Shown here: positions 29,471 through 42,534 of the stretch, one piece after another
Numbering within the stretch: position 1 is the first letter of the stretch
How the letters are laid out: each line of letters begins with the position of its first letter
Notes under the pieces: generated by a model
What the model saw: only the letters and a program-made list of their open reading frames with translations
Database searches by the model: none
What the model was told of the DNA's origin: nothing
DNA from: Synechococcus sp. AG-686-F08
Lineage (GTDB): Bacteria; Cyanobacteriota; Cyanobacteriia; PCC-6307; Cyanobiaceae
Length of the DNA stretch: 56,227 nucleotides
Assembly: GCA_003210315.1 (NCBI GenBank)
Contig: QCVQ01000008.1
Coordinates: forward strand, 1 to 56,227
Direction of reading: 5' to 3'
Position numbers and translations under genes: made by a program

Positions 29471-30937
29471 ATGCCGAGATTCTTATTTCGCCAAGGCGTA
29501 GACATATGCATCAAAAACAATGACATCATCATCAGAACCCCATACGCCACACGATCAGACCCAAATCGTCAACTATTGCGCATCAGTGATGCTGAAGAAC
29601 CAATAAAAAAACTAGTCAAAAAACTTTCCCAAGAGGGAATCGAAAGCAATCAATATAGAGATATACCGAAAGAGATAGGATCCACTTCTCCAAACTTTAA
29701 GCTTTGGCGGCAACTAAAAGACTTCTACAGAAAAGGTTTACTCATTCACGAAATCAGTGGATGCAATGGTATTGCTATACGCCTGCTGCCCATCAATCCA
29801 GGGATAAAGCAACAACTCTGCCCAAGCGACAATAAAGAAATCAAACTATCAACATTTACTAGCATTCAGCCCTGCCTAGAAGGCCTCGACATCACATCAC
29901 CATTAACATCCACAACACTACGCCTACAGGATCATCGGCTCTACCCACTCATCCAAAGACTCGTAGCACCCTGCACATTAGAAAGCATTAGGCTCCTCCT
30001 GCCAGAAGATCTATGCTCTCAAAGCCAAGACATCATTTCTCTTTTCCTCTCCTCTGGAATGGCAGGGATCTGCAACTCCGAGCAGAACGCAGAGATCGAC
30101 CAAGACGCCATCAAGGCCGGGTGGAACAAGCAAGACCTGAGCTTTCACAGTCATACCCGTCGACATATTATTGATCACTACCAAGAAGAGTTGTTGCCTC
30201 GAGAAATCAATGAGGCTTCGCCAAAGGCAAGAAATCAAAGAATCATCCTCAGCACAGTTTCATTGCCAAAACCATCAATCGATAACCAAGATATAAATTT
30301 CTATCAAGTACTTAAGAAACGAAAAAGCATTCGAACCTATAAAACTAGTCCTATAAGCATTAAAGCATTAGGGAGCCTACTGTGGCATTCGATGCACACC
30401 AGAGAAGAAATCATCTGTGATCCAGCGCTAACTCGTTCCTACGAAGGATTATTAAGGCCTGTCGCGAGTGCTGGAGGCCTACACTCCATCGAACTCTATC
30501 TGTGCATAAAACAGTGCATCGGTGTAAGCCCAGGTTTTTATCACTACGACTCTTTTGACCACTCTCTCGGGAGAATGAGTGATCTAAACAAATCCTGCCA
30601 AAACATGCTTGAGATGGCTGTCAACACAACATGCCGAGCGCCACAGGCCGCTTCGATATCTCCTGGACAAGGCCAGCAACCTGATGTCCTAATCGTAATG
30701 GCTACGCGCTATGAAAGGAATTCCAGCCTTCACTCTGAAACTGGTCTTGCCTATGCCCTAATACTGAAAGATACAGGTGCAATTTATCAGCAGCTCTATC
30801 TTGTTGCTACAGCGCTTGGGCTCGCGCCATGTGGACTAAGCTTTGGGAGCAGTGAATTATTCGAAAAAGCTTCCGGGATATCTCGCCAAATCGAATGTTC
30901 TGTAGGCGAATTCATGGTTGGAAATCCCGGACAATGA
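29471..30937 (+). CDS. SagB-type (ThcOx) FMN dehydrogenase, nitroreductase superfamily
   Basis: 488 residues. The last 230 are an FMN nitroreductase domain of SagB type: KKRKSIRTYKT, RPVASAGGLHSIELYLCI, GLAYALILKDTGAIYQQLYL and ALGLAPCGL. The first 240 or so form a divergent SagB N-terminal region. SagB proteins oxidise azolines to azoles in thiazole/oxazole-modified peptides, or act alone as unknown oxidases. No YcaO cyclodehydratase or obvious Cys/Ser/Thr-rich precursor is in the window, so the role is open. Base composition is more AT-rich than the genes before it. Confidence 0.82.
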   Translation: MPRFLFRQGVDICIKNNDIIIRTPYATRSDPNRQLLRISDAEEPIKKLVKKLSQEGIESNQYRDIPKEIGSTSPNFKLWRQLKDFYRKGLLIHEISGCNGIAIRLLPINPGIKQQLCPSDNKEIKLSTFTSIQPCLEGLDITSPLTSTTLRLQDHRLYPLIQRLVAPCTLESIRLLLPEDLCSQSQDIISLFLSSGMAGICNSEQNAEIDQDAIKAGWNKQDLSFHSHTRRHIIDHYQEELLPREINEASPKARNQRIILSTVSLPKPSIDNQDINFYQVLKKRKSIRTYKTSPISIKALGSLLWHSMHTREEIICDPALTRSYEGLLRPVASAGGLHSIELYLCIKQCIGVSPGFYHYDSFDHSLGRMSDLNKSCQNMLEMAVNTTCRAPQAASISPGQGQQPDVLIVMATRYERNSSLHSETGLAYALILKDTGAIYQQLYLVATALGLAPCGLSFGSSELFEKASGISRQIECSVGEFMVGNPGQ

Positions 30938-31078
30938 TCAAGAGGTTCTTCATACAAATGCAAACAAAGCAGCAACTATAGAGAGAGAATTAAGAGGGGG
31001 AGATGACTCATCCCTGTGCCAGAACATCGCGATAAATCGAGACATAAGAACCTGATCGAAGCAAACAGAGGACTGTGA

Positions 31079-31201
31079 ATGAAACACTCCCCAAAAGCGT
31101 CAAAGAAGATAGTGGTCACCCGTAAGGTCGCAATCCGACCATCCTTGACGAGTTATCTGCGTCGCGCACCGCACGTCACGGGACAGGGAAGCAAGGCTTA
31201 A
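31079..31201 (+). CDS. Candidate 40-residue basic protein
   Basis: An ATG preceded at six bases by GAGGA opens a 40-codon frame with many Lys and Arg (for example KASKKIVVTRKVAIRP and SYLRRAPHV). It lies between the SagB gene and hli. It has no recognised family and could be a leader or chance. The rest of the 30938-31351 gap shows no other feature except the hli promoter. Confidence 0.3.
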   Translation: MKHSPKASKKIVVTRKVAIRPSLTSYLRRAPHVTGQGSKA

Positions 31202-31318
31202 GCGACAGCTGATTAGCACTGACCAATCCAGAGCAACACCGAGATCAACACCTCTTGGCCCTTGGCTAGACCTCAAAACAAACGCGAACACGGCAAAAGC
31301 GGCAAAGCCCGCAACAGT

Positions 31319-31328
31319 CTGTTACAAT
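31319..31328 (+). promoter_or_regulatory. Promoter element of hli copy 1
   Basis: CTGTTACAAT, with TACAAT fitting a -10 box, 24 bases before the ATG. The same ten bases precede hli copy 2 at 37617-37626, so they are conserved where the flanks are not. Confidence 0.5.
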
Positions 31329-31351
31329 AGTTTTAAGTTTAATAACGACAG

Positions 31352-31489
31352 ATGGAAAACTCCAAATTCGGCTTCTCAAGCTTCGCTGAGCAGTGGAACG
31401 GAAGGCTCGCAATGATGGGCTTCGTAATCGGACTCGGCACGGAACTACTGACTGGACAGGGAATTCTTTCCCAAATTGGTCTCGGCTGA
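31352..31489 (+). CDS. hli: High-light-inducible protein (copy 1)
   Basis: 45 residues, one transmembrane helix with the chlorophyll-binding motif of the LHC superfamily: FAEQWNGRLAMMGFVIGLGT followed by ELLTGQGILSQIGLG. Hlips bind chlorophyll and carotenoid and protect photosystem assembly under high light and nutrient stress. It differs from copy 2 (37649) by a few residues near the N-terminus, one Met/Leu and one Ile/Val. It is monocistronic with its own promoter and terminator. Confidence 0.95.
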   Translation: MENSKFGFSSFAEQWNGRLAMMGFVIGLGTELLTGQGILSQIGLG

Positions 31490-31528
31490 AGCCGACTGAC
31501 TAACTAAGTTCTAGCCAAACATAAAAAA

Positions 31529-31556
31529 GAGTTGGATATTTCCAGCTCTTTTTTTT
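31529..31556 (+). terminator. Rho-independent terminator of hli copy 1
   Basis: GAGTTGGA, loop TATT, TCCAGCTC, then eight T; 8-bp stem with one wobble. It is 39 bases past the hli stop. Confidence 0.93.
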
Positions 31557-31889
31557 GCGCAGATTGTATGGGAGGAGAATCAAAATAATGACATGTGTCT
31601 CCCTTCGGCTTCACTACTATTATCAATAAAAATCTATATACTTCCAACAAGAAATATTTTAGCCGATAAGATTCCTTTGCTCTACCAGAAAGTGTATATA
31701 CATAAAACAGATCGATCTACACGAGGATCGATAGTAGTAAATCCTTATTGGTTATGAGATTCTCATTTCCAAATAACGTACCAACACATCGCAAGCTTTC
31801 GATAATTTGCGAGTAACTAAGACAATGCGGACAAGGCTTAGGTCAAAGGTGGCTGCTTACATGCGCTATCTAGCTGAGTACTAATCAGT
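31557..31889. other. AT-rich gap
   Basis: 333 bases with no supported gene. A 19-codon frame at 31825-31884 (beginning MRTRLRSKVAAYMRYL) has a basic, helical character but no clear ribosome binding site. It is too short to call. Confidence 0.35.
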
Positions 31890-32198
31890 TCATTTGTTGC
31901 GTCTACCTGGCTCAGGAATATCCTCTTCAAACATTGAAATCGCACCAAGCAGTAGAGCCATACAGGTTGTAAGCATAAAAACCCATGTCCCCATAACTAA
32001 AACTTGATTGTCTCCATAAGTTAGTTCAACAGGCCATGCTTCGATAAATAAAGAAACCATTAGGAAAACAAAGAGCAATACTTCTCCAGCATGGAGGTTG
32101 AGCGATCTGAGACTATTAACCAATACAACATTCTCAAGTAGCAGATGACAGCAGATAGAGTGATAAGCATTTATGCACAAACCAATAGATAGCAGCAA
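31890..32198 (-). CDS. Small membrane protein, unknown function
   Basis: Up to 102 residues from a TTG at 32198; shorter starts are possible. Two strong hydrophobic segments (EVLLFVFLMVSLFIEAW and VLVMGTWVFMLTTCMALLLG) are separated by a short loop PVELTYGDNQ, and the tail is charged (FEEDIPEPGRRNK). It looks like a two-helix membrane protein. No family is recognised. Confidence 0.5.
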   Translation of the reverse strand: MLLSIGLCINAYHSICCHLLLENVVLVNSLRSLNLHAGEVLLFVFLMVSLFIEAWPVELTYGDNQVLVMGTWVFMLTTCMALLLGAISMFEEDIPEPGRRNK

Positions 32199-32263
32199 GA
32201 CGTAGAATCACTCAAGCGAAAACAGATCAAAAAAAGTCCAAAAAACTCCCAAAAAGACTGAAC

Positions 32264-32449
32264 ATGCCTCCCTATCAAATTTTTCAATGCGATGTAGAAG
32301 AAGAAAACAGTTCAGGAACTTATGAAACTCTTGAACTAGCAAAGACTGCCTGGGCTGATTTAATATCAAGGCGGAATGAAATGAGCTTAATAGCCATAGA
32401 GCTCGTTGACGACGAGTTAGAAGTAATAGAAACTTATTACTTTATTTAA
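32264..32449 (+). CDS. Small acidic protein, unknown function
   Basis: 61 residues starting MPPYQIFQCDVEEENSSGTY and ending DELEVIETYYFI. Acidic, with a pattern of alternating strands and one helix (LELAKTAWADLISRR), typical of small soluble picocyanobacterial proteins. No named family. Confidence 0.55.
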   Translation: MPPYQIFQCDVEEENSSGTYETLELAKTAWADLISRRNEMSLIAIELVDDELEVIETYYFI

Positions 32450-32801
32450 AATCCCATTGGAAGATTATAAAAAGTCAAAACCAAAATGTCCATATCATTC
32501 TTGTATTCAAAACAATACCAGAATAGGAAGATGAAAGTCTATTAATTGAATCCAAATCATGGATTGACAGAATATTTGACAAGGCAACAAATCCTGACCA
32601 CAGCAAGATGGGGCCTAATTGAGACAATCAGAACAGTAAATACTTTTCGAAAGAGAAGAAGCAAAAGATAACACCTCTTCTTTCCATCATAAGCAAAAAT
32701 CTAAAGCTTCCAGTGGTTAATAATTTAAAGCCAATAGTTTAGAGAAAAGACTCAAAAACAGAAGTCAAAAAGACTGAGGGATGGAAACAAGCCAAGCTGG
32801 A
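32450..32801. other. AT-rich gap
   Basis: 352 bases downstream of both flanking genes (they converge here). No good open frame, no clear terminator stem and no RNA feature found. Confidence 0.35.
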
Positions 32802-32933
32802 TCATGACTGATTTTTCTTAAAGTTCTTGACAGCTAATTGCAGCTGTCCCAACGCCGCACGCCCTATATTAAAAACCGCCCAAGAAATTGCTAGCACAAT
32901 GGGAGTAAAAACAGCAACTATTCGCCAATCCAT
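32802..32933 (-). CDS. psbY: Photosystem II protein Y-like peptide
   Basis: 43 residues: MDWRIVAVFTPIVLAISWAV then FNIGRAALGQLQLAVKNF. The MDWR start, single helix and basic tail match PsbY, a one-helix peripheral PSII subunit near cytochrome b559 that is not essential. I start at ATG 32933, since the upstream extension has no family similarity. It stands alone in an AT-rich region. Confidence 0.75.
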   Translation of the reverse strand: MDWRIVAVFTPIVLAISWAVFNIGRAALGQLQLAVKNFKKNQS

Positions 32934-33148
32934 AGTCTTTAAAAAGCCTGATTTGAACAGGCTACATACCAAAAACAAAACAAGCAAAGCCTTCCTTACA
33001 TTTGAATGCATCAAATGGCAGGTAAGAGAGTAAGTTAATTGCGTCTAAAATGAAATATCATCTTGTCATGCAGAATTAGAAAGATTATTTCGTTTGATAG
33101 CCCAACAAGACCCTTGCTACGCTTTGATAGAAGAAATAGGAGAGATTT

Positions 33149-33370
33149 ATGGTTACCCCAAACTGGTATTATTTTGCAATTGCTCCTCTTAATAGCGGTA
33201 CTATCCGATTTAGAACTAAAACAGAAAGAGCATTGCATGCTCGTGTCATTGCTTGCGAAATAAACTGGAAAGACTACCAGACATCCAACCTTCTAGACGA
33301 ATGGATTACTGCAAAAAAAGAATTAGAAATTTATCAAGACTCCCTTCACATAAACAACAAAAAAAATTAG
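33149..33370 (+). CDS. Small protein, unknown function
   Basis: 73 residues, ATG preceded by GGAGAG at a good distance. The sequence MVTPNWYYFAIAPLNSGTIR has a strand-like start, and the rest (LDEWITAKKELEIYQDSL) is helical and charged. It is not recognised. The ribosome binding site supports expression. Confidence 0.5.
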   Translation: MVTPNWYYFAIAPLNSGTIRFRTKTERALHARVIACEINWKDYQTSNLLDEWITAKKELEIYQDSLHINNKKN

Positions 33371-33463
33371 AAATTGATTAAAAGAAAGTTATAAAATTTT
33401 TGAAGAGTGAAAAACCAGTAAAAGTCCTTAAATCGAAGCTTTAGCCCCTGTCCAGAGAAACAT

Positions 33464-33577
33464 ATGGATGATAATCCTAATCGGAGAGGCATGAAAGCAG
33501 ACTTCAATAAATCTTTTTCAAATACTGTTCACCTCCAAAAGAAACATGGTTGGCAAGAATCAAAACCAAAAGCGTAG
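33464..33577 (+). CDS. Candidate 37-residue protein
   Basis: An ATG-started frame, MDDNPNRRGMKADFNKSF followed by SNTVHLQKKHGWQESKPKA. It is basic and hydrophilic, with GAGAAA upstream as a weak binding site. The internal RRGMKADFNK resembles short picocyanobacterial peptides, but I cannot name one. It lies in a 500-base gap (33371-33870) with nothing else evident. Confidence 0.35.
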   Translation: MDDNPNRRGMKADFNKSFSNTVHLQKKHGWQESKPKA

Positions 33578-33870
33578 TAATCCATCTGACGGATAAAAGA
33601 AACAAATAGACAATGCAAGGCTATAGCTTAGGGTCAATAAAGATCAGAGGATATTAAACATAAAATAGTCGAAACCAACCAAAACAAAAGAATGCTTACT
33701 AACACCCTCTATCTAGAATACGTTTCTTACTCTCAGCTGGCCCAAACCAACCACCACATGAACTGATGGCAGGGTGGAAGAAGCAATTGAACTACATGCA
33801 AATGAATCAGATGACAGAGCAATAGAACAGCGGAGGAAGTTACAATAAGAATATCTTCTATATTTAAAAC

Positions 33871-34101
33871 TTGTCTATTTACTCTTGGGCGCTAAAATTT
33901 CCCACTATCTATCACATCACGGTAAAAGCACCCGCAGGCTTAGAGCCAAATGAAATATTAGAAAAGATTAAAAGTGGAGAAATAGAATTCGAGGCCGAAA
34001 GCTATGACAGCTTTACACCTGGAGATTTCATGAAAACATGTTATTCAGAAGAGAATAAAGAGCTAATAATGAAAATGGAAGAAGAAGAGGAGGAGCAATA
34101 A
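33871..34101 (+). CDS. Small acidic protein, unknown function
   Basis: Up to 76 residues from TTG 33871. The conserved-looking part begins near FPTIYHITVKAPAGLEPNEI and continues KSGEIEFEAESYDSFTPGDF. It ends in a run of eight Glu among MEEEEEEQ. The strand-helix-strand pattern suggests a small alpha/beta fold. No family is recognised. Confidence 0.55.
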   Translation: MSIYSWALKFPTIYHITVKAPAGLEPNEILEKIKSGEIEFEAESYDSFTPGDFMKTCYSEENKELIMKMEEEEEEQ

Positions 34102-34359
34102 GGTCACAACAAGTGAATCATATGCATGACGTGCTGTCATTGGCATACAAACCAAACGCCCTACTCACAAATACAGGAGGGGTGTCAAACCCAACAGTTC
34201 AGAGGAGACAACGGAGACAAGCATCGTCGAATCATTAACAAGGCTGTGACTGAAGGCTTTTCAAGTCTAATTTGTGCACGATCACATCTATTCCCCAACA
34301 ACTGAGAGAATTGCATAAGTTACCACCTCTCATAACAAGTGAGCAATTAAATTGTTCGT

Positions 34360-34465
34360 ATCGCTGGGACAATTGGTCCTCATTTAGTTTTAATAGAAGA
34401 AGGCACCGTTTGGTCAACACGGTGGCGCATGCACCAAGTCGCTCTGGACAGGGCGGCTTTTTTTT
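34360..34465 (+). ncRNA. Candidate structured small RNA with terminator
   Basis: Two hairpins followed by a T-run in a 725-base gene-free gap (34102-34826). The first has CACCGT (34404-34409) pairing with ACGGTG (34419-34424). The second has GTCGCTCT and AGGGCGGC (34438-34457) around loop GGAC, then eight T. No gene ends nearby on this strand, so an independent short transcript is plausible. The 5' end is a guess. A TTG-started frame at 34512-34727 lies after it but looks non-coding. Confidence 0.4.
34438..34465 (+). terminator. Orphan Rho-independent terminator
   Basis: 8-bp stem (three G-U pairs) with a four-base loop and eight T; 337 bases past the nearest upstream stop codon on this strand. 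Confidence 0.75.
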
Positions 34466-34826
34466 GCATAGAGAAACATGATACCCAACTAAAACAATAG
34501 AAGCCCACAAATTGATCGCTAATCCAAGGACGAGTCGATGTAAAATACCAAATAAACGAGCTACACCAGAAAACTTACAGTGTATTATTTTTGTAAGAGA
34601 TAGAAAACGATTTTATCCTTGTCTAGACTCAATCAGGCTAGAAAATCTAGCCCCTGGGAATCGAAAACTATTAATACCGATTTTTTATTGCCAAACCATA
34701 CTAAGAATGGAGCCTGATCATCTTTAGTTACGATGCCAGGTAATCAAAGACAGTCTCAGCAGTAGCGACTAATATCTCTAAACACGACACAGTTTTGTAG
34801 AGTAAAAAATATACAAACAAATCAAA

Positions 34827-35048
34827 GTGCTAAAATTAATAACTTCAATGTCACTGTATGCTGTTGTTTGTATTTTGGCTATTTATGCGGCCACAAGGGA
34901 ATATGAACAACAGCAGCCTATTGGCCTTCTAATCGTAGGGATGGTATTCATTCCCATAATAATAACGATTTATGGAGGTCTACCCTTGGATTTCATGAAA
35001 AAAGCGAAGCCTATAGAGACTACTACGAACCACGATGATCTCACCTAG
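34827..35048 (+). CDS. Small two-helix membrane protein, unknown function
   Basis: 73 residues from GTG 34827, or 66 from ATG 34848. Two transmembrane segments (SLYAVVCILAIYAATR and IGLLIVGMVFIPIIITIYGG) are joined by EYEQQQP and followed by a polar tail. It is not recognised. Confidence 0.5.
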   Translation: MLKLITSMSLYAVVCILAIYAATREYEQQQPIGLLIVGMVFIPIIITIYGGLPLDFMKKAKPIETTTNHDDLT

Positions 35049-35143
35049 ACGCAATTCAAAAATAGATATTCAAATAACTCAAAGCATCAAGATAGTAAAT
35101 AACAATCTTGAAGGGTGATCAAGATATAGATACACATCGAATT

Positions 35144-35174
35144 AAAAAAAGCTGGCTCAATTAATGAGCCAGCT
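35144..35174 (-). terminator. Rho-independent terminator of the phosphatase lipoprotein gene
   Basis: On the minus strand, AGCTGGCTCA pairs with TGAGCCAGCT, a perfect stem, and is followed by seven T. 30 bases past the stop at 35205. Confidence 0.93.
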
Positions 35175-35204
35175 ACCTCTAAAGGACTTGCAGTACAGGA
35201 CAGA

Positions 35205-35981
35205 TCAGAGTTGAGCCAACGATTGCCACTGATTAGGCTTAATCTTGGCGACCAGATCGAACTTGCCATCACCAAGGGGTTTTGCAATATAGGCAACACC
35301 CATCGGTGCGGGATAAATCCCCTCAGCTGGAACGACAGGCATTGTCACTCCCTGGAAAGGATCATCATGTCCAACTAGGAACGTGTTTTTTCCAGACTCA
35401 GGCTTCGCGGACATCAAAGGAGAAACGCGCGTGGCGTATTCTTTGTAGTCCTCCGGAGTGCACTCAACACAGGGCAGGAAGTTCAGTTTTGAGTTCTTGG
35501 TGTAGGTGCCGAAAGCTAGATCAGCTGTGTTGTATGCACGGCAGTAGTCGCTTGAAATGACATCTCCGACGGGAATACCTGCCGCCTTAATACCTTCGCC
35601 GATCACTTTGGCATCAGCTTTGCCTTCAGTACTCAGGCGACGCTGGGTATTGCAGTCGGAGAGATCAAGTGCAGGGCTGACCTGGTCACCCCAATCTTTA
35701 ACAGTTTTAGTATGTCGAAGGTAAATGACATGACCACCATCCCTCAGAGCGCTGACAAGAGCTTTGTCGTCGAGTTTGTTGACAAACTCTTTGTTGTTCT
35801 GCTCCCCGGAAAGGGTGGTGTTGTTTTGCTCATAGGCTTCTACACCACTCCTGTCTGCGGACAGTTGTTCTTGGGATGCGGTGTCATTGGATAGATTCTT
35901 GGTGGATTCCTTAGTATCCGACTCAGACGAGCATGCTCCTAGCATCATGAGAACTAAGGCCAAGGAAAGTTTTTTGATCAT
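35205..35981 (-). CDS. Lipoprotein with histidine-phosphatase domain
   Basis: 258 residues. The signal peptide MIKKLSLALVLMMLGAC ends in a lipobox (LGAC, cysteine at about 17), so the protein is lipid-anchored on the periplasmic side. A Ser/Thr/Asn-rich linker of about 60 residues leads to a histidine-phosphatase fold: IYLRHTKT (RH motif), the second arginine in SDYCRAYNTADLAF, and the C-terminal histidine in FLVGHDDPFQG. The catalytic pair is intact, although RHT replaces the common RHG. The mature domain has four cysteines. Substrate unknown; a phosphate-scavenging role is only a guess. Confidence 0.8.
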   Translation of the reverse strand: MIKKLSLALVLMMLGACSSESDTKESTKNLSNDTASQEQLSADRSGVEAYEQNNTTLSGEQNNKEFVNKLDDKALVSALRDGGHVIYLRHTKTVKDWGDQVSPALDLSDCNTQRRLSTEGKADAKVIGEGIKAAGIPVGDVISSDYCRAYNTADLAFGTYTKNSKLNFLPCVECTPEDYKEYATRVSPLMSAKPESGKNTFLVGHDDPFQGVTMPVVPAEGIYPAPMGVAYIAKPLGDGKFDLVAKIKPNQWQSLAQL

Positions 35982-36294
35982 AGGAAAAAGTGTTTCAAGT
36001 ATTCAAAGCCATGCCCATTGATCGATCATCTTGCGAATTACGAATAGATGTCATCGTTGATACAAAACCGCCGCATTAATAAGCTCAGCCAGCAATGCAA
36101 AAGTGACCTAGGGTCAGCGAAGAATTCCAATATGCTAATCACATAGCAATGGCAAATACTAAAACTATTTATATGCTTCAAGGGAGTAAAAGGAGTGAGC
36201 AGGATTACTCTCTCCACCATCCACAAGAATTGCGACTGGTGGTTACTAGTAAGTTGCACCTAAACAGTGCTGGCTGTACGGAAGAATAATTACT
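35982..36294. other. Gap upstream of the lipoprotein gene
   Basis: 313 bases, presumably holding the lipoprotein promoter. No convincing gene, repeat or hairpin with T-run was seen. Confidence 0.35.
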
Positions 36295-36570
36295 TCAGTT
36301 TTTCCCTGATGGCCGTTGAGCTCTGTAATCATCGGCCACGACATCTAGCAATCCGAGTACATACTGGTCAGTAGCTTTTATCTTTAGCTGTAGGCTCAAA
36401 ACAGTAAACCTTATTGACTCAATAGCATCATTTATTTCCCCTTCAAGCTCGTCTTTTGATGGTTTCCACTCATCGCGACAAAAGCTTGGATTGCTAGATA
36501 TTTTATCAAAAATACTAATTGAATTACTTGCATTACCTTGAGGCTGATTACGCCTTTTAATTGGCTTCAT
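36295..36570 (-). CDS. Small helical protein, unknown function
   Basis: 91 residues, ATG start. A basic start (MKPIKRRNQPQGN) leads to a helical charged region (EWKPSKDELEGEINDAIES, LQLKIKATDQYVLGLLDVVA). Soluble. Not recognised; coding status rests on length and plausible composition. Confidence 0.45.
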   Translation of the reverse strand: MKPIKRRNQPQGNASNSISIFDKISSNPSFCRDEWKPSKDELEGEINDAIESIRFTVLSLQLKIKATDQYVLGLLDVVADDYRAQRPSGKN

Positions 36571-37241
36571 TGGAGAATCAAAACTGATTTATCATCGTTG
36601 AGTCTTAGATTCCATTTATGACAAAAAACAGATAGGGGCGTAACCGCAATCACAACTCCATGTCAAGTATTGATTGCTCCAGTCAACACCTTAGAGAAAA
36701 GTGACTCTTTGTAGCCCGAGAAGAAGGATAAGACACCCACCTTTCAATTTTTCGGCCCGAACCTTCCCTTTCTCAGAGAGTCCCAGTGCTAGACATCAAG
36801 GGAGCAAGAGAGAATGCCTCGCTTTTGTGCAGGCATCACGCTCATAAGTCACAGCTATTGAGAACTTTTCGCACTAACGAAGTCTGCTATTGGAGAAAAA
36901 TAGATAGGTGACTCTTTGGACGGGGTCAACAGTCCCACAACCATCAACCTTTCGCGATTTAGAAGCCCGCGCGAGGTTGAGGGACAGTAACTTGAATTGT
37001 AAAGCGAACTAAAGGCCTAAACATTAGGTTTTTAAAACACCGTCCATCTCATGGGCCGCCCTGCAGAAGTAACGACTGGGGCTTCACTCTCTCATTACTC
37101 TTAAGGTGTCAACATGGCAACAGCGATAGTGTCTTAAAAAAGAATGCAAAAACAATTCAAAACGGCTGCATACAACAATAGAAACTTGTAGAGAGCAGAA
37201 CTATTGCTGGATCAATTCCATAAGCACAATTGAAAACCCGG
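36571..37241. other. Long non-coding stretch
   Basis: 671 bases without a supported gene. A stem CAACCT..CGCG / CGCG..AGGTTG (36945-36979) is present but has no T-run. It could be the eroded body of a duplicated SagB gene, since its last part precedes a SagB-like relic, but I could not recognise further SagB segments. Confidence 0.35.
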
Positions 37242-37316
37242 TTTGAAGGAGATTCACCTATATCTAGCAAGATTGAGTGCTTTGCAGGTCAATTCATAAT
37301 TGGTAATTACCGACAA
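37242..37316 (+). pseudogene. Relic of a SagB-type dehydrogenase C-terminus
   Basis: The frame reads FEGDSPISSKIECFAGQFII then GNYRQ. The intact SagB gene ends FEKASGISRQIECSVGEFMV then GNPGQ, so about half of 25 positions are identical without gaps and most others are conservative. The frame is closed by a stop at 37221-37223 upstream, so only the last 25 codons survive. It precedes hli copy 2 just as the intact SagB precedes copy 1. Confidence 0.7.
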
Positions 37317-37616
37317 ATAAATATCATCCCCTGCAATGAACAAAACGCATAAAAAAATTTGCAGAGAAAGTGGTCCGTCATGGAGAATCAATTAAGACGC
37401 GCCTAACAAGTACCACTTTGCCGCTCCGCCACACAAAAATACTGAGTGAATGCAAGCTTGGAAGGCCACTGTTTGCTTGCGCGGCAAGCGCACTGGTTCA
37501 CTGGAAATCACTTGGAGCAGACCCTTAGCGAGGAGAACCCAGAAAGGTGCATCTTGCTATCGAAAAATCGGCAAGAAAGGGGGCAGAAGAACAGACAGAC
37601 CGGAAAGCGCAATAAT
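37317..37616. other. Spacer between SagB relic and hli copy 2
   Basis: 300 bases. Frames rich in Lys and Arg run from 37446 and 37450 through the promoter into the hli start and are probably not translated. No RNA gene found. Confidence 0.35.
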
Positions 37617-37626
37617 CTGTTACAAT
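37617..37626 (+). promoter_or_regulatory. Promoter element of hli copy 2
   Basis: CTGTTACAAT, identical to the element before hli copy 1, 23 bases from the ATG; TACAAT fits a -10 box. Confidence 0.5.
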
Positions 37627-37648
37627 TTCTTCAGATTTCTTAACTCAG

Positions 37649-37786
37649 ATGAGTGATTCAAAATTTGGCTTCTCATCCTTTGCAGAACAGTGGAATGGGC
37701 GCCTCGCGATGCTGGGTTTCGTCATTGGTCTAGGCACAGAGCTCTTAACAGGACAGGGGATTCTTTCCCAGGTAGGTCTTGGGTGA
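37649..37786 (+). CDS. hli: High-light-inducible protein (copy 2)
   Basis: 45 residues, FAEQWNGRLAMLGFVIGLGT followed by ELLTGQGILSQVGLG, so the chlorophyll-binding Glu, Asn and Arg are intact. About 90 percent identical to copy 1, while many third codon positions differ, which argues for selection on both copies. Own promoter and terminator; same orientation as copy 1. Likely membrane photoprotective subunit. Confidence 0.95.
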   Translation: MSDSKFGFSSFAEQWNGRLAMLGFVIGLGTELLTGQGILSQVGLG

Positions 37787-37808
37787 AACCTGCTCTAGAA
37801 ACCGACGT

Positions 37809-37853
37809 CTGGATGCCCAATAGCAAAACTGGGCATTTCCAGCTCTTTTTTTT
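37809..37853 (+). terminator. Rho-independent terminator of hli copy 2
   Basis: CTGGA-TGCCCA pairs with TGGGCA-TT-TCCAG (two-base bulge), then CTC and eight T. The 3' half, ATTTCCAGCTCTTTTTTTT, is the same as after hli copy 1, but the 5' half differs. Confidence 0.85.
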
Positions 37854-38171
37854 CGCAGCATTCATTGCAGTACTTGGCATTGGAGGCAACATAGCCATAC
37901 GCCATCTATGGACTTCACTAGTGAGTACGGCCAACCTTTTCTAGGAGACAAACCAAGCAAACTATTAGTGATTGAAAAAGTGCCTGCAAGGAGTACCATC
38001 CGTGCAGGCTTTTTTGTTGAAAGTAATTCACTTACCAGTCAGAATAACCCATCGGAGTTACAAGCACAGCGCCCTCTTCAGCAACTTGCCGCTAATGCAA
38101 TTTAGGAATTAGGTATTACCAATGCCTATGGTCAAGGCTTGGGAAATCAAGTCATTTAGGTTAGGAGGAGT
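37854..38171. other. Gap with an orphan terminator
   Basis: 318 bases after hli copy 2. It contains the hairpin terminator at 37982-38015. A frame at 37908-38105 runs straight through that terminator, so I do not call it a gene. Confidence 0.35.
37982..38015 (+). terminator. Orphan Rho-independent terminator
   Basis: GCCTGCA pairs perfectly with TGCAGGC; inside, GGA pairs with TCC beyond an A-G mismatch. Six T follow. It is separate from the hli terminator 129 bases upstream and has no gene of its own. Confidence 0.85.
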
Positions 38172-39800: not shown

Positions 39801-40835
39801 ATGCAATCCTATGGGAAACCATCAGTCAGTTATGACTGGTGGGCTGGCAATTCTGGAGTAGCGAAACGATCCGGTTCCTTCATTGCTGCTCATACAGCAC
39901 ATGCAGGCCTAATCATGTTTTGGGCAGGAGCATTCACACTCTTTGAGTTGGCTCGTTACGACGCGTTGCTACCCATGGGGGACCAGGGATTAATCCTTCT
40001 CCCTCATATGGCTTCATTGGGTTTAGGCCTCGGTGCAGGGGCAACGATAGTGAACACAGAGCCATACATCGCCATAGCCGCATTTCACTTGATCTCTTCC
40101 GCGGTATTGGGAGCTGCTGGTATTTGGCATCTCCTCAGAGCTCCTAAGGATCTTTCTAAAGCAGAAGGCCGTGCCGAAAAATTTCATTTCGAGTGGGATG
40201 ACCCCAAGAAACTCACTTTTATTCTTGGCCACCATCTCATCTTTCTAGGTCTTGGAGCTATTGCCTTCGTTGAATGGGCACAGCACCACGGAATTTATGA
40301 CACTGCCATTGGAGCAGTTCGCAAGGTTGAACCCAACATTGACCTGGGAATGGTATGGAGCTATCAGACTAATTTCCTATCTATTAGCAGTTTAGAAGAC
40401 GTAATGGGGGGCCATGCTGTATTGGCTTTTATATTGACGATTGGTGGGGTATGGCACATTGTCACAAGCCCATTTGGACCCTTCAAGAAAATACTTATCT
40501 ACTCCGGAGAAGCAATCCTTTCCTATTCACTTGCAGGAATCGCGCTCATGGGGTTTGTGACAAGTATATGGTGCGCACAAAACACAACTATTTATCCAGT
40601 TGAATTCTACGGAGAGGCTTTAAAACTCAACTTTGCATTCTCACCTTACTTTAGCGACACAGTACCTGTGTTGAATGATGGGCATACTGCCAGAGCCTGG
40701 CTCGCCAATACTCACTTTTACCTGGCCTTTTTCTTCCTGCAGGGACACTTCTGGCATGCATTGAGGAGTATGGGCTTTGATTTCAGGAGCGTCCCAAAAG
40801 CCCTCGACGAAATGGAAACAATCAAGGTGAATTAA
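39801..40835 (+). CDS. isiA: Iron-stress chlorophyll-binding protein IsiA (CP43-like)
   Basis: 344 residues with six transmembrane helices. MQSYGKPSVSYDWWAGNSGV and FIAAHTAHAGLIMFWAGAFT are typical of IsiA/Pcb antennae; conserved chlorophyll-binding His pairs are visible (LPHMASLGLGLGAG, FILGHHLIFLGLG, VMGGHAVLAFILTIGGVWHI, LQGHFWHALRSMGF). It lacks the large lumenal loop of CP43. It forms rings around photosystem I under iron limitation. isiB (flavodoxin), often next to it, is absent here. A strong terminator follows. Fur control is expected, but no clear Fur box was found. Confidence 0.92.
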   Translation: MQSYGKPSVSYDWWAGNSGVAKRSGSFIAAHTAHAGLIMFWAGAFTLFELARYDALLPMGDQGLILLPHMASLGLGLGAGATIVNTEPYIAIAAFHLISSAVLGAAGIWHLLRAPKDLSKAEGRAEKFHFEWDDPKKLTFILGHHLIFLGLGAIAFVEWAQHHGIYDTAIGAVRKVEPNIDLGMVWSYQTNFLSISSLEDVMGGHAVLAFILTIGGVWHIVTSPFGPFKKILIYSGEAILSYSLAGIALMGFVTSIWCAQNTTIYPVEFYGEALKLNFAFSPYFSDTVPVLNDGHTARAWLANTHFYLAFFFLQGHFWHALRSMGFDFRSVPKALDEMETIKVN

Positions 40836-41026: not shown

Positions 41027-41464
41027 TCACAGAGACTTGATATACAACCAGTCCCCCTTCCGATCCCCATCCCTCCGTTGGAAGAGCGACGTTTCAGTCA
41101 TCACATTGCGTTGACCACCCGCCCCAAATGTTGCCTCAAACGTCACCGTGCCTTCAAGATCTTCCACTCCGCCAGCCTCCACGGCCTTGATCCTCAGTCC
41201 CAACCAACGCGCCTCGCGACAATTCTTCCGTAACTCTTTGCGGCGTTGCCCCAATGGCGTCAATGAATCCGGATGCGTTGCCATCAAATAATCCACTTCA
41301 GCAAGCGCAAAAGCCGAATAACGCGAACGCATCAACTGTTCAGCGGTATTAGCCAATTGTTCCCCACGATGCAGAGGTTCACAGCAAGTTTCGTAGCTCA
41401 TTCCGCTTAAGCACGGGCAAGGTTCTGTGCTTTTCGATGATCCAAAACCAGCAGCGCTTGCCAT
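41027..41464 (-). CDS. SEC-C motif protein, YchJ/UPF0225 family
   Basis: 145 residues. The N-terminal zinc motif CPCLSGMSYETCCEPLH (CxCx8CC) and AEQLMRSRYSAFALAEVDYL then MATHPDSL define the YchJ family; the rest matches its NTF2-like fold (VTFEATFGAGGQRNVMTETS). Function unknown. ATG 41464 overlaps the DUF3326 stop by one base; the last gene of the overlapping cluster. Confidence 0.88.
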   Translation of the reverse strand: MASAAGFGSSKSTEPCPCLSGMSYETCCEPLHRGEQLANTAEQLMRSRYSAFALAEVDYLMATHPDSLTPLGQRRKELRKNCREARWLGLRIKAVEAGGVEDLEGTVTFEATFGAGGQRNVMTETSLFQRRDGDRKGDWLYIKSL

Positions 41465-42534
41465 CACTCCATCTCCTTCAAAGCTGGTAAGGGTCGCATC
41501 AATGCAGACAAGGAAACACCTTCGCGCAAGGCCAACACCATTCCAGCCGCTTCTGCATAAGAACTCGCTTGCAACACCTCAGATCCCAAGCCGAGCACTG
41601 TTGAGGTGACCTGCAACAAGGACGGATTGGTCACACAGATCACAGGAACCTTGCGCTCAAGACAAGCCAACGCTGCTTCTCCACCCAAAGAGCCCTCTGG
41701 GACAACCAACACTCCCAAATCATCAGCGACAAGATCACGGATGTTGGCCGATGAGCGCTGGACCAATTCGGGTGCCTGACTTAAACCCACCAACACGCAC
41801 GCCAAAAAGGTGTAACCCAACTCTTCCCCAGCAGCACGAGGATCCAGCTGCGGATCCAGCGGCAACACTGATAGGGCCGGCGCATGGGCGCAGGGAATCT
41901 CTAGATGGCGCACCAGTAGATGACTGATCACCGCTTCGGCGCCCGCCAAAGCATCCACACCACTGCCATGGCGGTAGGCCTGCAAAGCCTCACTGCCCTG
42001 ATCGTCGGGAAAGCGGGCAACGACCGCAATCGCCGTTGCACCATTGGCTTTTAAACGTTCACCCGCCCGCAATAAAGCATCGGGGCGCTCGAGGGTGCCC
42101 CAACTCGCCCCGCTCTGGCCCAATCCCAAATGAACCCCTAAGGGCACATCGCTAGAGACCACAGGGCCGATCTCAATGCCCAGCGTTGCCCTGCAACCAT
42201 CAGCGACCTGCAGGTGGCGTTGACGAAGCTCGGGTTCGATTCCGGCATCCAAAAGCAAACCAATCCGCTGCTTGCGAATAGGCCTCAGCGCCCAATCACC
42301 GGCTGCAAAGCGGTCGATGCCATACCCCTCCACATAGTGAATGCGCGGGTCTTTCCAATACAAGGAAGCCCCATTCATCACGTTGGGATGGGTGATCAAA
42401 CACCCAGAGGCCGCCGCCAGAAGCCTTGCACTCGGAAGCGCGTCGCCGGCATACCCGCCGATCAAACAACCAATCCCTGTTGGGACCACCATCAACGTGG
42501 GCAAGGGAGACACCAAAGACAGCCTCTCCCTCAC
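41464..42534 (-). CDS. DUF3326 family protein
   Basis: 356 residues from GTG 42534, which overlaps the preceding stop (GTGA). Recognisable DUF3326 segments: LMVVPTGIGCLIGGYAGDAL, ITHPNVMNGASLYW and VVPEGSLGGEAALACLERKV. Cyanobacterial and plant protein of unknown reaction; the Rossmann-like glycine patterns suggest a nucleotide or cofactor site. It lies within a run of four overlapping genes that includes a ferredoxin, so a redox link is conceivable. Confidence 0.82.
   Translation of the reverse strand: MRERLSLVSPLPTLMVVPTGIGCLIGGYAGDALPSARLLAAASGCLITHPNVMNGASLYWKDPRIHYVEGYGIDRFAAGDWALRPIRKQRIGLLLDAGIEPELRQRHLQVADGCRATLGIEIGPVVSSDVPLGVHLGLGQSGASWGTLERPDALLRAGERLKANGATAIAVVARFPDDQGSEALQAYRHGSGVDALAGAEAVISHLLVRHLEIPCAHAPALSVLPLDPQLDPRAAGEELGYTFLACVLVGLSQAPELVQRSSANIRDLVADDLGVLVVPEGSLGGEAALACLERKVPVICVTNPSLLQVTSTVLGLGSEVLQASSYAEAAGMVLALREGVSLSALMRPLPALKEME

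What the first reader, a model, noticed from the sequence alone, without database searches (positions are those of the whole stretch)
29471..37853. SagB-hli segment duplicated, with one SagB copy eroded to its last 25 codons
The sequence shows SagB, spacer, CTGTTACAAT, hli and a terminator at 30.9-31.6 kb, and again at 37.2-37.9 kb, where SagB survives only as a relic (FEGDSPISSKIECFAG against FEKASGISRQIECSVG). The hli copies and part of the terminators match; the spacers do not. The inference is an old segmental duplication in which hli was kept and SagB lost, with about 5.6 kb of small genes now in between. Alternatively the relic came from a separate SagB paralogue.
Basis: partly seen in the sequence, partly recalled or inferred. 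Interest (0 to 1): 0.7.

Follow-up and report, generated by a model that had tools for sequence, protein, structure and literature searches.

The report
Old SagB-hli duplication, one SagB decayed
In a marine Synechococcus, a pair of neighbouring genes appears to have been duplicated long ago next to a light-harvesting antenna gene; relatives preserve intermediate stages and show that one copy of the first gene has been worn down to its last 25 codons while both copies of the second survive.

Summary
The relic is real. The last 25 SagB codons (30860-30934) match 37242-37316 at 51 of 75 bases; the next best place in the window has 36. The promoter-hli-3' segments align at 71%. Relatives settle its nature. 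G289 keeps a longer dead SagB, about 103 codons, before the same second hli, so far more of a second SagB once stood there. A single-contig genome, G123, carries the same 25-codon relic at another chromosomal site, in a block with small genes, hli2 and the antenna gene pcb. The relic's substitutions are spread over all codon positions, as in neutral decay. The two hli genes form distinct lineages: hli1 (SagB-linked, with a terminator) and hli2 (pcb-linked, overlapping a conserved 53-codon gene). By-products: hli1's terminator aligns with codons of the lost 53-codon gene; this SagB type lacks the Lys-Tyr motif and usually any YcaO partner; a dispersed repeat borders the relic. Ordinary genome evolution, unusually well documented.

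The parts
29471..30937 (+). intact SagB-type dehydrogenase gene (488 aa), copy A
   Evidence: TIGR03605 E 3.8e-35; PF00881 E 4e-12; only match in the held genome
30860..30934 (+). SagB 3' end homologous to the relic
   Evidence: 51 of 75 identical
30938..31309 (+). spacer 1; 31021-31351 matches the SagB-hli spacer of G034, 31062-31348 that of G123
31319..31328 (+). CTGTTACAAT, conserved promoter-like block of hli1
   Evidence: CTGTTAC before 15 of 16 distinct hli copies of this subfamily examined
31352..31489 (+). hli1 (45 aa), SagB-linked lineage
   Evidence: group of 6 with support 97/97
31523..31556 (+). intrinsic terminator of hli1, aligned with codons of orf53 in hli2-type loci
31570..36600 (.). 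small genes between the copies; also present in the pcb block of G123 and in part in G222
35205..35981 (-). histidine-phosphatase-like gene (258 aa), in G123's block, not found in G222's, matched at other places in 9 further genomes
36820..37085 (+). dispersed repeat with strong predicted fold, left of the relic
37242..37316 (+). SagB relic (last 25 codons), copy B
37317..37616 (+). spacer 2; 37490-37644 homologous to the G034 SagB-hli spacer
37617..37626 (+). CTGTTACAAT, conserved promoter-like block of hli2
37649..37786 (+). hli2 (45 aa), pcb-linked lineage
37783..37944 (+). orf53: 53-aa gene whose GTG overlaps the hli2 stop; contains the stretch read as the second terminator
   Evidence: same length in all 10 hli2-type (orf53-type) copies translated, differences by codon position 776/613/1241 over all pairs; no Pfam or NCBIfam match
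39801..40835 (+). pcb: chlorophyll a/b-binding light-harvesting protein (CP43-like antenna)
   Evidence: TIGR03041 E 1.5e-152
41030..41578 (-). YchJ/SEC-C-type gene, right-hand anchor of the locus in relatives

Best explanation
An old duplication (or second allele) of a SagB-spacer-hli segment next to an antenna gene. Inferred ancestral order: ald - SagB - hli - orf53 - small genes - pcb - ychJ-like gene. A second SagB-hli unit came to lie upstream, with its right edge inside orf53. Both hli genes stayed open: hli1 ends in its own terminator, hli2 overlaps orf53 and is probably translated together with it. The redundant SagB in front of hli2 died and was worn away to different lengths in different genomes. 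Relatives then lost different pieces (hli1, hli2, or orf53 to pcb), and the relic-bearing pcb block, bordered by a dispersed repeat, was exchanged between genomes and sites by recombination. The relic itself probably does nothing. Shown: both copies, the longer relic, substitutions without codon bias, two hli lineages, the block at another site. Inferred: tandem duplication as first event, order of losses, recombination as route.
For: Relic significance. Longer dead SagB before hli2 in G289, 60% over 311 columns, E 4e-16 against G101 SagB, with stops in all three frames. Same relic in G123's island, 95% over 116 bases. Differences by codon position 8/6/10 for relic against SagB, 6/0/7 between two open SagBs over the same stretch. 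hli1 and hli2 lineages split at 97/97. SagB-hli without pcb in G034, G123, G075, G239; SagB-orf53-pcb without hli in G101; SagB - small genes - hli2 - pcb in G222. Remains of the pcb 3' end and its downstream spacer before the ychJ-like gene in G034 (E 4e-55) and, weaker, in G123 (E 5e-10) suggest that pcb once stood at the main locus there too. Both spacers match one relative.
Against: No genome examined keeps two intact SagB-hli units in tandem. The relics are too short or too diverged to be placed in a tree: RELIC_G289 with G101 is neither required nor rejected (p-AU 0.42 and 0.36). G301 has SagB directly before the ychJ-like gene and hli2-pcb on another contig, so the ancestral order is not certain. 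The G123 pcb remnant is weak on the coding part alone (score 17; best of 300 shuffles 15). Tandem duplication and acquisition of a second allele give the same pattern.
Confidence: 0.72

Rival explanations
1. The second unit was imported: the relic-bearing block (small genes - relic - hli2 - orf53 - pcb) arose in another lineage and recombined into a resident SagB-hli1 locus, using hli on the left and the pcb end on the right. The relic is then debris of the donor's SagB, not of a duplication in this genome's ancestor.
For: The block sits at 911-920 kb in G123, with a psbA gene and a recombinase-like gene 6-10 kb beyond it. Block identity G000-G123 is 93-98% in 17 of 20 bins of 33.75-38.75 kb (the other three 89-92%) against 86.5-90.5% in the core flanks. 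G123 keeps SagB-hli-terminator at the main locus as well.
Against: G289 has a longer relic in front of hli2 on a contig that continues through pcb into the ychJ-like gene, and G222 has hli2-pcb at the same place, so the block is also at home at this site in several genomes. pcb itself (87.4%) and 31570-34900 as a whole (87.7%) are no more alike than core genes.
Confidence: 0.35
2. The relic comes from a separate, older SagB paralogue (for example of the YcaO-linked type) and not from a sister of the SagB upstream.
For: The relics branch outside the SagBs of this locus in the tail trees, which were drawn with midpoint roots and long branches.
Against: The 25-codon relic matches the SagBs of this locus at 65-75% DNA identity and the G289 relic at 59-61%; the 52% clade is matched only weakly (DNA E 0.24 or worse). 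Against eight YcaO-linked SagB loci neither relic has a DNA match better than E 1.1. Spacer, promoter block and hli continue the homology.
Confidence: 0.05
3. Chance match or assembly chimera of a fragmentary genome.
For: The held genome is 58.9% complete in 64 contigs, as amplified single cells often are (its origin is not stated).
Against: Every junction recurs elsewhere: SagB-hli1 in G034, G123, G075 and G239; hli1-like to small genes, and relic-hli2-pcb, in single-contig G123; SagB - small genes - hli2 - pcb in single-contig G222. Relic rank and E-values.
Confidence: 0.02

Closest known systems
SagB/ThcOx azoline dehydrogenases (TIGR03605; PDB 5lq4 CyaGox, 8pz5)
   Same: Same family by profile and by phmmer to CyaGox, E 7.5e-31
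   Different: No YcaO gene in 10 of 10 near-complete genomes that hold only this type; two genomes (G277, G295) hold this type and YcaO, the YcaO genes lying beside their other SagBs. The WKY of CyaGox and of YcaO-linked SagBs is replaced by SLHSETG or similar in 13 of 13 aligned rows (13 of the 17 genomes in which searches found this type). That the Lys-Tyr pair is catalytic is recalled, not read here.
High light-inducible proteins (HLIP/SCP) of marine picocyanobacteria
   Same: 45-aa proteins with the chlorophyll-binding core (PF00504, just under its cut-off), several per genome
   Different: A sublineage tied to SagB and pcb; not phage-type: the best-ranked phage match is 68% over 76%, and 91 of 95 phage records lie at 60-80%
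Pcb/IsiA CP43-like antenna proteins (TIGR03041)
   Same: Full-length match
   Different: Here in a variable block with hli2; 6 of 31 genus genomes have it at 94-100%, 10 more have an 80-83% form, 15 have none at E 1e-80
Pseudogene relics left by segmental duplication and differential loss
   Same: Collinear homologous units, one member decayed without codon bias
   Different: Graded erosion in relatives (about 103, 25 and 0 codons), and the relic travels in a block found at two sites

Membership tests
Segmental duplication with pseudogene | two collinear homologous units in one genome | tested here: met
   SagB tail, spacer (through G034), promoter block and hli
Segmental duplication with pseudogene | the decayed member was once longer | tested here: met
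   about 103 codons remain in G289
Segmental duplication with pseudogene | neutral substitution pattern in the decayed member | tested here: met
   8/6/10 by codon position against 6/0/7 for open SagBs; only 25 codons, no formal test
Segmental duplication with pseudogene | tandem copying in one ancestor rather than import of a second allele | tested here: inconclusive
SagB azoline dehydrogenase | family profile above the curated cut-off | tested here: met
   120.9 bits, cut-off 78.4
SagB azoline dehydrogenase | YcaO cyclodehydratase in the genome | tested here: not met
   own genome 0, but only 59% complete; 0 of 10 genomes with only this type; G277 and G295 have YcaO beside other SagBs
SagB azoline dehydrogenase | Lys-Tyr motif (role recalled) | tested here: not met
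   absent in 13 of 13 aligned rows, present in 7 of 7 readable YcaO-type rows; one row (G120) taken in a wrong frame and dropped
Intrinsic terminator (copy 1) | stable stem followed by a T run | tested here: met
   -13.8 kcal/mol, 8 T; all 6 hli1-type copies -12.7 to -16.9 with 7-8 T
Intrinsic terminator (copy 2) | stable stem followed by a T run | tested here: not met
   8 T are there but the stem in front of them does not form; coding sequence of orf53

The most novel reading that the evidence does not exclude
The right edge of the copied segment fell inside orf53, and the broken gene's codons for R/K-A/T-G-H-F-Q-L-F-F became the intrinsic terminator that now ends hli1: a terminator born from coding sequence, with both states still present in one genome. 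In the same locus, a SagB-type flavoenzyme without YcaO partner and without the Lys-Tyr motif has been taken into a conserved neighbourhood of photosynthetic (Hli, Pcb) genes.
Probability: 0.4. Interest if true: 0.55.

Novelty: new member of a known kind. Interest (0 to 1): 0.38.

Why it matters
It gives a graded series of gene decay (about 103, 25 and 0 codons) in one group of marine Synechococcus, shows an antenna gene block at two chromosomal sites with neighbouring debris attached, and offers a natural case in which a transcription terminator may have arisen from codons of a lost gene. It also marks a SagB lineage that is probably not making azole peptides, which matters for automatic natural-product annotation of cyanobacteria.

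Tried and rejected
Chance and assembly chimera: rejected. Relic of a YcaO-type SagB: not supported; no DNA match better than E 1.1 against eight such loci. Phage origin of the hli copies: not supported; best-ranked phage match 68% over 76% of the length. Known RNA family in 28-40 kb: none credible (two matches at E 0.8-0.9 far below their gathering scores). Placement of the relics in a SagB tree: not resolvable, long branches. Covariation for the dispersed repeat: inconclusive; 94.9% of cells pair, but 102 of 500 shuffles reach that and 38 of 500 reach the covariation score, with one double change; RNAalifold on the longer alignment lists 3 pairs with a double change. A conserved small peptide in spacer 1 was looked for only by eye in the alignment. 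Two fetched pcb neighbourhoods (G141, G283) held no hli of this type and were not used further. I did not use the search for homologous proteins, structure prediction, fold searches, PADLOC or PHROGs results. Literature: all eight searches failed and one look-up by DOI failed, so no paper was seen and I make no claim about what is in print.
Full report
What is there. The window is contig C8 of a genome held as G000 (1.58 Mb, 64 contigs, 58.9% complete). That it is a marine Synechococcus is inferred: the four named records with a close SagB are all Synechococcus, the best Synechococcus sp. AG-679-C18 at 64%. SagB at 29471-30937 is a SagB-family dehydrogenase. Its last 75 coding bases recur at 37242-37316, 51 of 75 identical; the next best placement in the window has 36. 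From the promoter block to the 3' side of hli the copies align at 71% over 257 columns. CTGTTACAAT occurs only at these two places in the window.

The relic is a dead gene, not a chance tail. Between SagB and relic the 24 differences are spread 8/6/10 over codon positions; between two open SagBs (window, G101) over the same stretch they are 6/0/7. The decisive relative is G289: upstream of its hli2 lies a longer SagB remnant, about 310 bases, 60% identical to the G101 SagB (E 4e-16), with stop codons in all three frames, while G289 also has an open SagB after ald, cut by the end of its contig at residue 465. G123 has the 25-codon relic, 95% identical to the window's over 116 bases. G222 shows no SagB match at DNA level before its hli2 (E up to 0.5). 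The second SagB was therefore once much longer and was worn down to different lengths. Neither relic matches the YcaO-linked SagB loci.

Two hli lineages. A tree of promoter plus hli (16 rows) separates six hli1-type rows (window copy 1, G034, G123 main locus, G075, G239, G123 island) from ten other rows at 97/97; the five rows of more distant genomes (G283, G277, G295, G169, G156) also form a group (97/92). In the tree of the coding part alone (18 rows) the hli1 group has 91/96. Of 12 hli copies translated past their stop, the 10 that are not hli1-type all overlap there a 53-codon gene, orf53, of constant length, with differences by codon position 776/613/1241 over all pairs; the two hli1-type copies in that call have stops in this frame. 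The other four hli1-type copies have a stop at codon 4 (G123 main) or 27 (G034), or stay open but do not resemble orf53 beyond the hairpin (G075, G239). hli1-type copies instead carry a 10-11 bp hairpin with 7-8 T, six of six. The hairpin aligns with codons AGHFQLFF of orf53. CAGCTCTTTT occurs in 13 distinct contexts in the 724 kb of loci held (a set chosen around SagB, hli and pcb, with overlaps): 9 lie within 300 bases after an hli by that script, one is the orf53 of G101, one is the G034 terminator read from the other strand, and two lie elsewhere. The coding copy of G301 already folds at -11.6 kcal/mol, so a hairpin may have pre-existed. An origin of the terminator from codons is plausible, but the shared stretch is short and convergence is not excluded.

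State of the locus in relatives (unless noted). G034, G075, G239 and the G123 main locus: ald - SagB - hli - terminator - ychJ-like gene. G034 holds a dead pcb 3' end with its downstream spacer (343 columns, E 4e-55; a stop inside the last 34 codons); in G123 a weaker match (E 5e-10) covers the last 77 coding bases of pcb and the spacer after it, and on the coding part alone it only just exceeds shuffles (17 against at most 15 in 300). G101: ald - SagB - orf53 - small genes - pcb - ychJ-like, hli missing. G222: ald - SagB - small genes - hli2 - orf53 - pcb - ychJ-like, no match to the window's spacer 1 or hli1 after SagB. G289: ald - SagB at one contig end; relic - hli2 - orf53 - pcb - ychJ-like on another contig. 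G301: SagB 193 bases before the ychJ-like gene, pcb block on another contig. G123 has a second locus at 911-920 kb: hli1' (ATG and promoter block lost, by eye) - small genes - repeat - relic - hli2 - orf53 - pcb. Six to ten kb beyond hli1' lie psbA and a tyrosine-recombinase-like gene, and nearer a phycobilisome-linker-like gene (names from reading the translations, not from a profile search).

Movement. Between window and G123 the core genes beside the main locus are 86.5-90.5% identical. The block is 93-98% identical in 17 of 20 bins of 250 bases from 33.75 to 38.75 kb, the other three at 89-92%; left of that, within the block, the bins run from 70 to 95%, right of it from 71 to 92%. Exchange of the middle of the block by recombination is the simplest reading. 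The repeat at the relic's left edge lies in front of both hli genes in the G123 island, which would provide homology for it.

What it works like. hli1 and hli2 are ordinary HLIP genes with a shared promoter-like block (CTGTTAC before 15 of 16 distinct copies of this subfamily; the three copies of another subfamily shown lack it). hli2 is probably translated together with orf53 through the overlapping stop and start (inference from NTGA). The relic has no function that I can see. SagB: the 13 aligned rows of this type (of 17 genomes with it) lack the WKY found in CyaGox and in 7 of 7 readable YcaO-linked relatives (one row, G120, was taken in the wrong frame and dropped). Ten of ten genomes holding only this type have no YcaO gene; G277 and G295, which hold this type too, have YcaO beside their other SagBs. 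I infer a flavoenzyme with another substrate; which one is unknown, and its link to photosynthesis rests on neighbourhood alone.

The dispersed repeat. A covariance model built from ten copies finds 15 copies, those ten included, in 6 of 31 genus genomes (G000, G222, G101, G301, G123, G289; only 95 first-look candidates per genome were scored). These are exactly the six genomes with the 94-100% identical pcb. The predicted consensus fold is strong, -66 kcal/mol, but covariation does not clearly exceed shuffles, so an RNA function is open; common descent of the six genomes could also explain the co-occurrence.

Verdict. Interest lies in the graded record of decay, the possible birth of a terminator from codons and the orphan SagB.

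Noticed in passing
window 36820-37085: Dispersed repeat with a near-invariant core of about 75 bases and strong predicted fold; 15 copies in 6 of 31 genus genomes, the same six that carry the 94-100% pcb; no credible Rfam match in 28-40 kb; covariation inconclusive.
   Followed up: partly
window 29471-30937: SagB type without the Lys-Tyr motif and, in 10 of 10 genomes holding only this type, without any YcaO gene; a separate 36% type in other genomes sits beside YcaO.
   Followed up: partly
window 37783-37944: Unannotated conserved 53-aa gene, by eye with one membrane helix, start overlapping the hli2 stop, in all 10 orf53-type hli copies translated; no Pfam or NCBIfam match.
   Followed up: partly
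L035 5103-5439 and L037 5062-5309: Remains of the pcb 3' end and its downstream spacer before the ychJ-like gene in G034 (clear) and G123 (weak), marking probable loss of the antenna gene from the main locus.
   Followed up: yes
window 35205-35981: Histidine-phosphatase-like gene in the block, not found in G222's block and matched at other places in 9 further genomes, up to 92% identical: a roaming gene.
   Followed up: no
L048 14191-14340: G123 island copy of hli1 has, by eye, lost its ATG and the CTGTTAC block: a decaying hli.
   Followed up: no
L067 8904-16103: G123 stretch beyond the pcb block with a psbA gene, a phycobilisome-linker-like gene and a tyrosine-recombinase-like gene, named by reading the translations only.
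   Followed up: no
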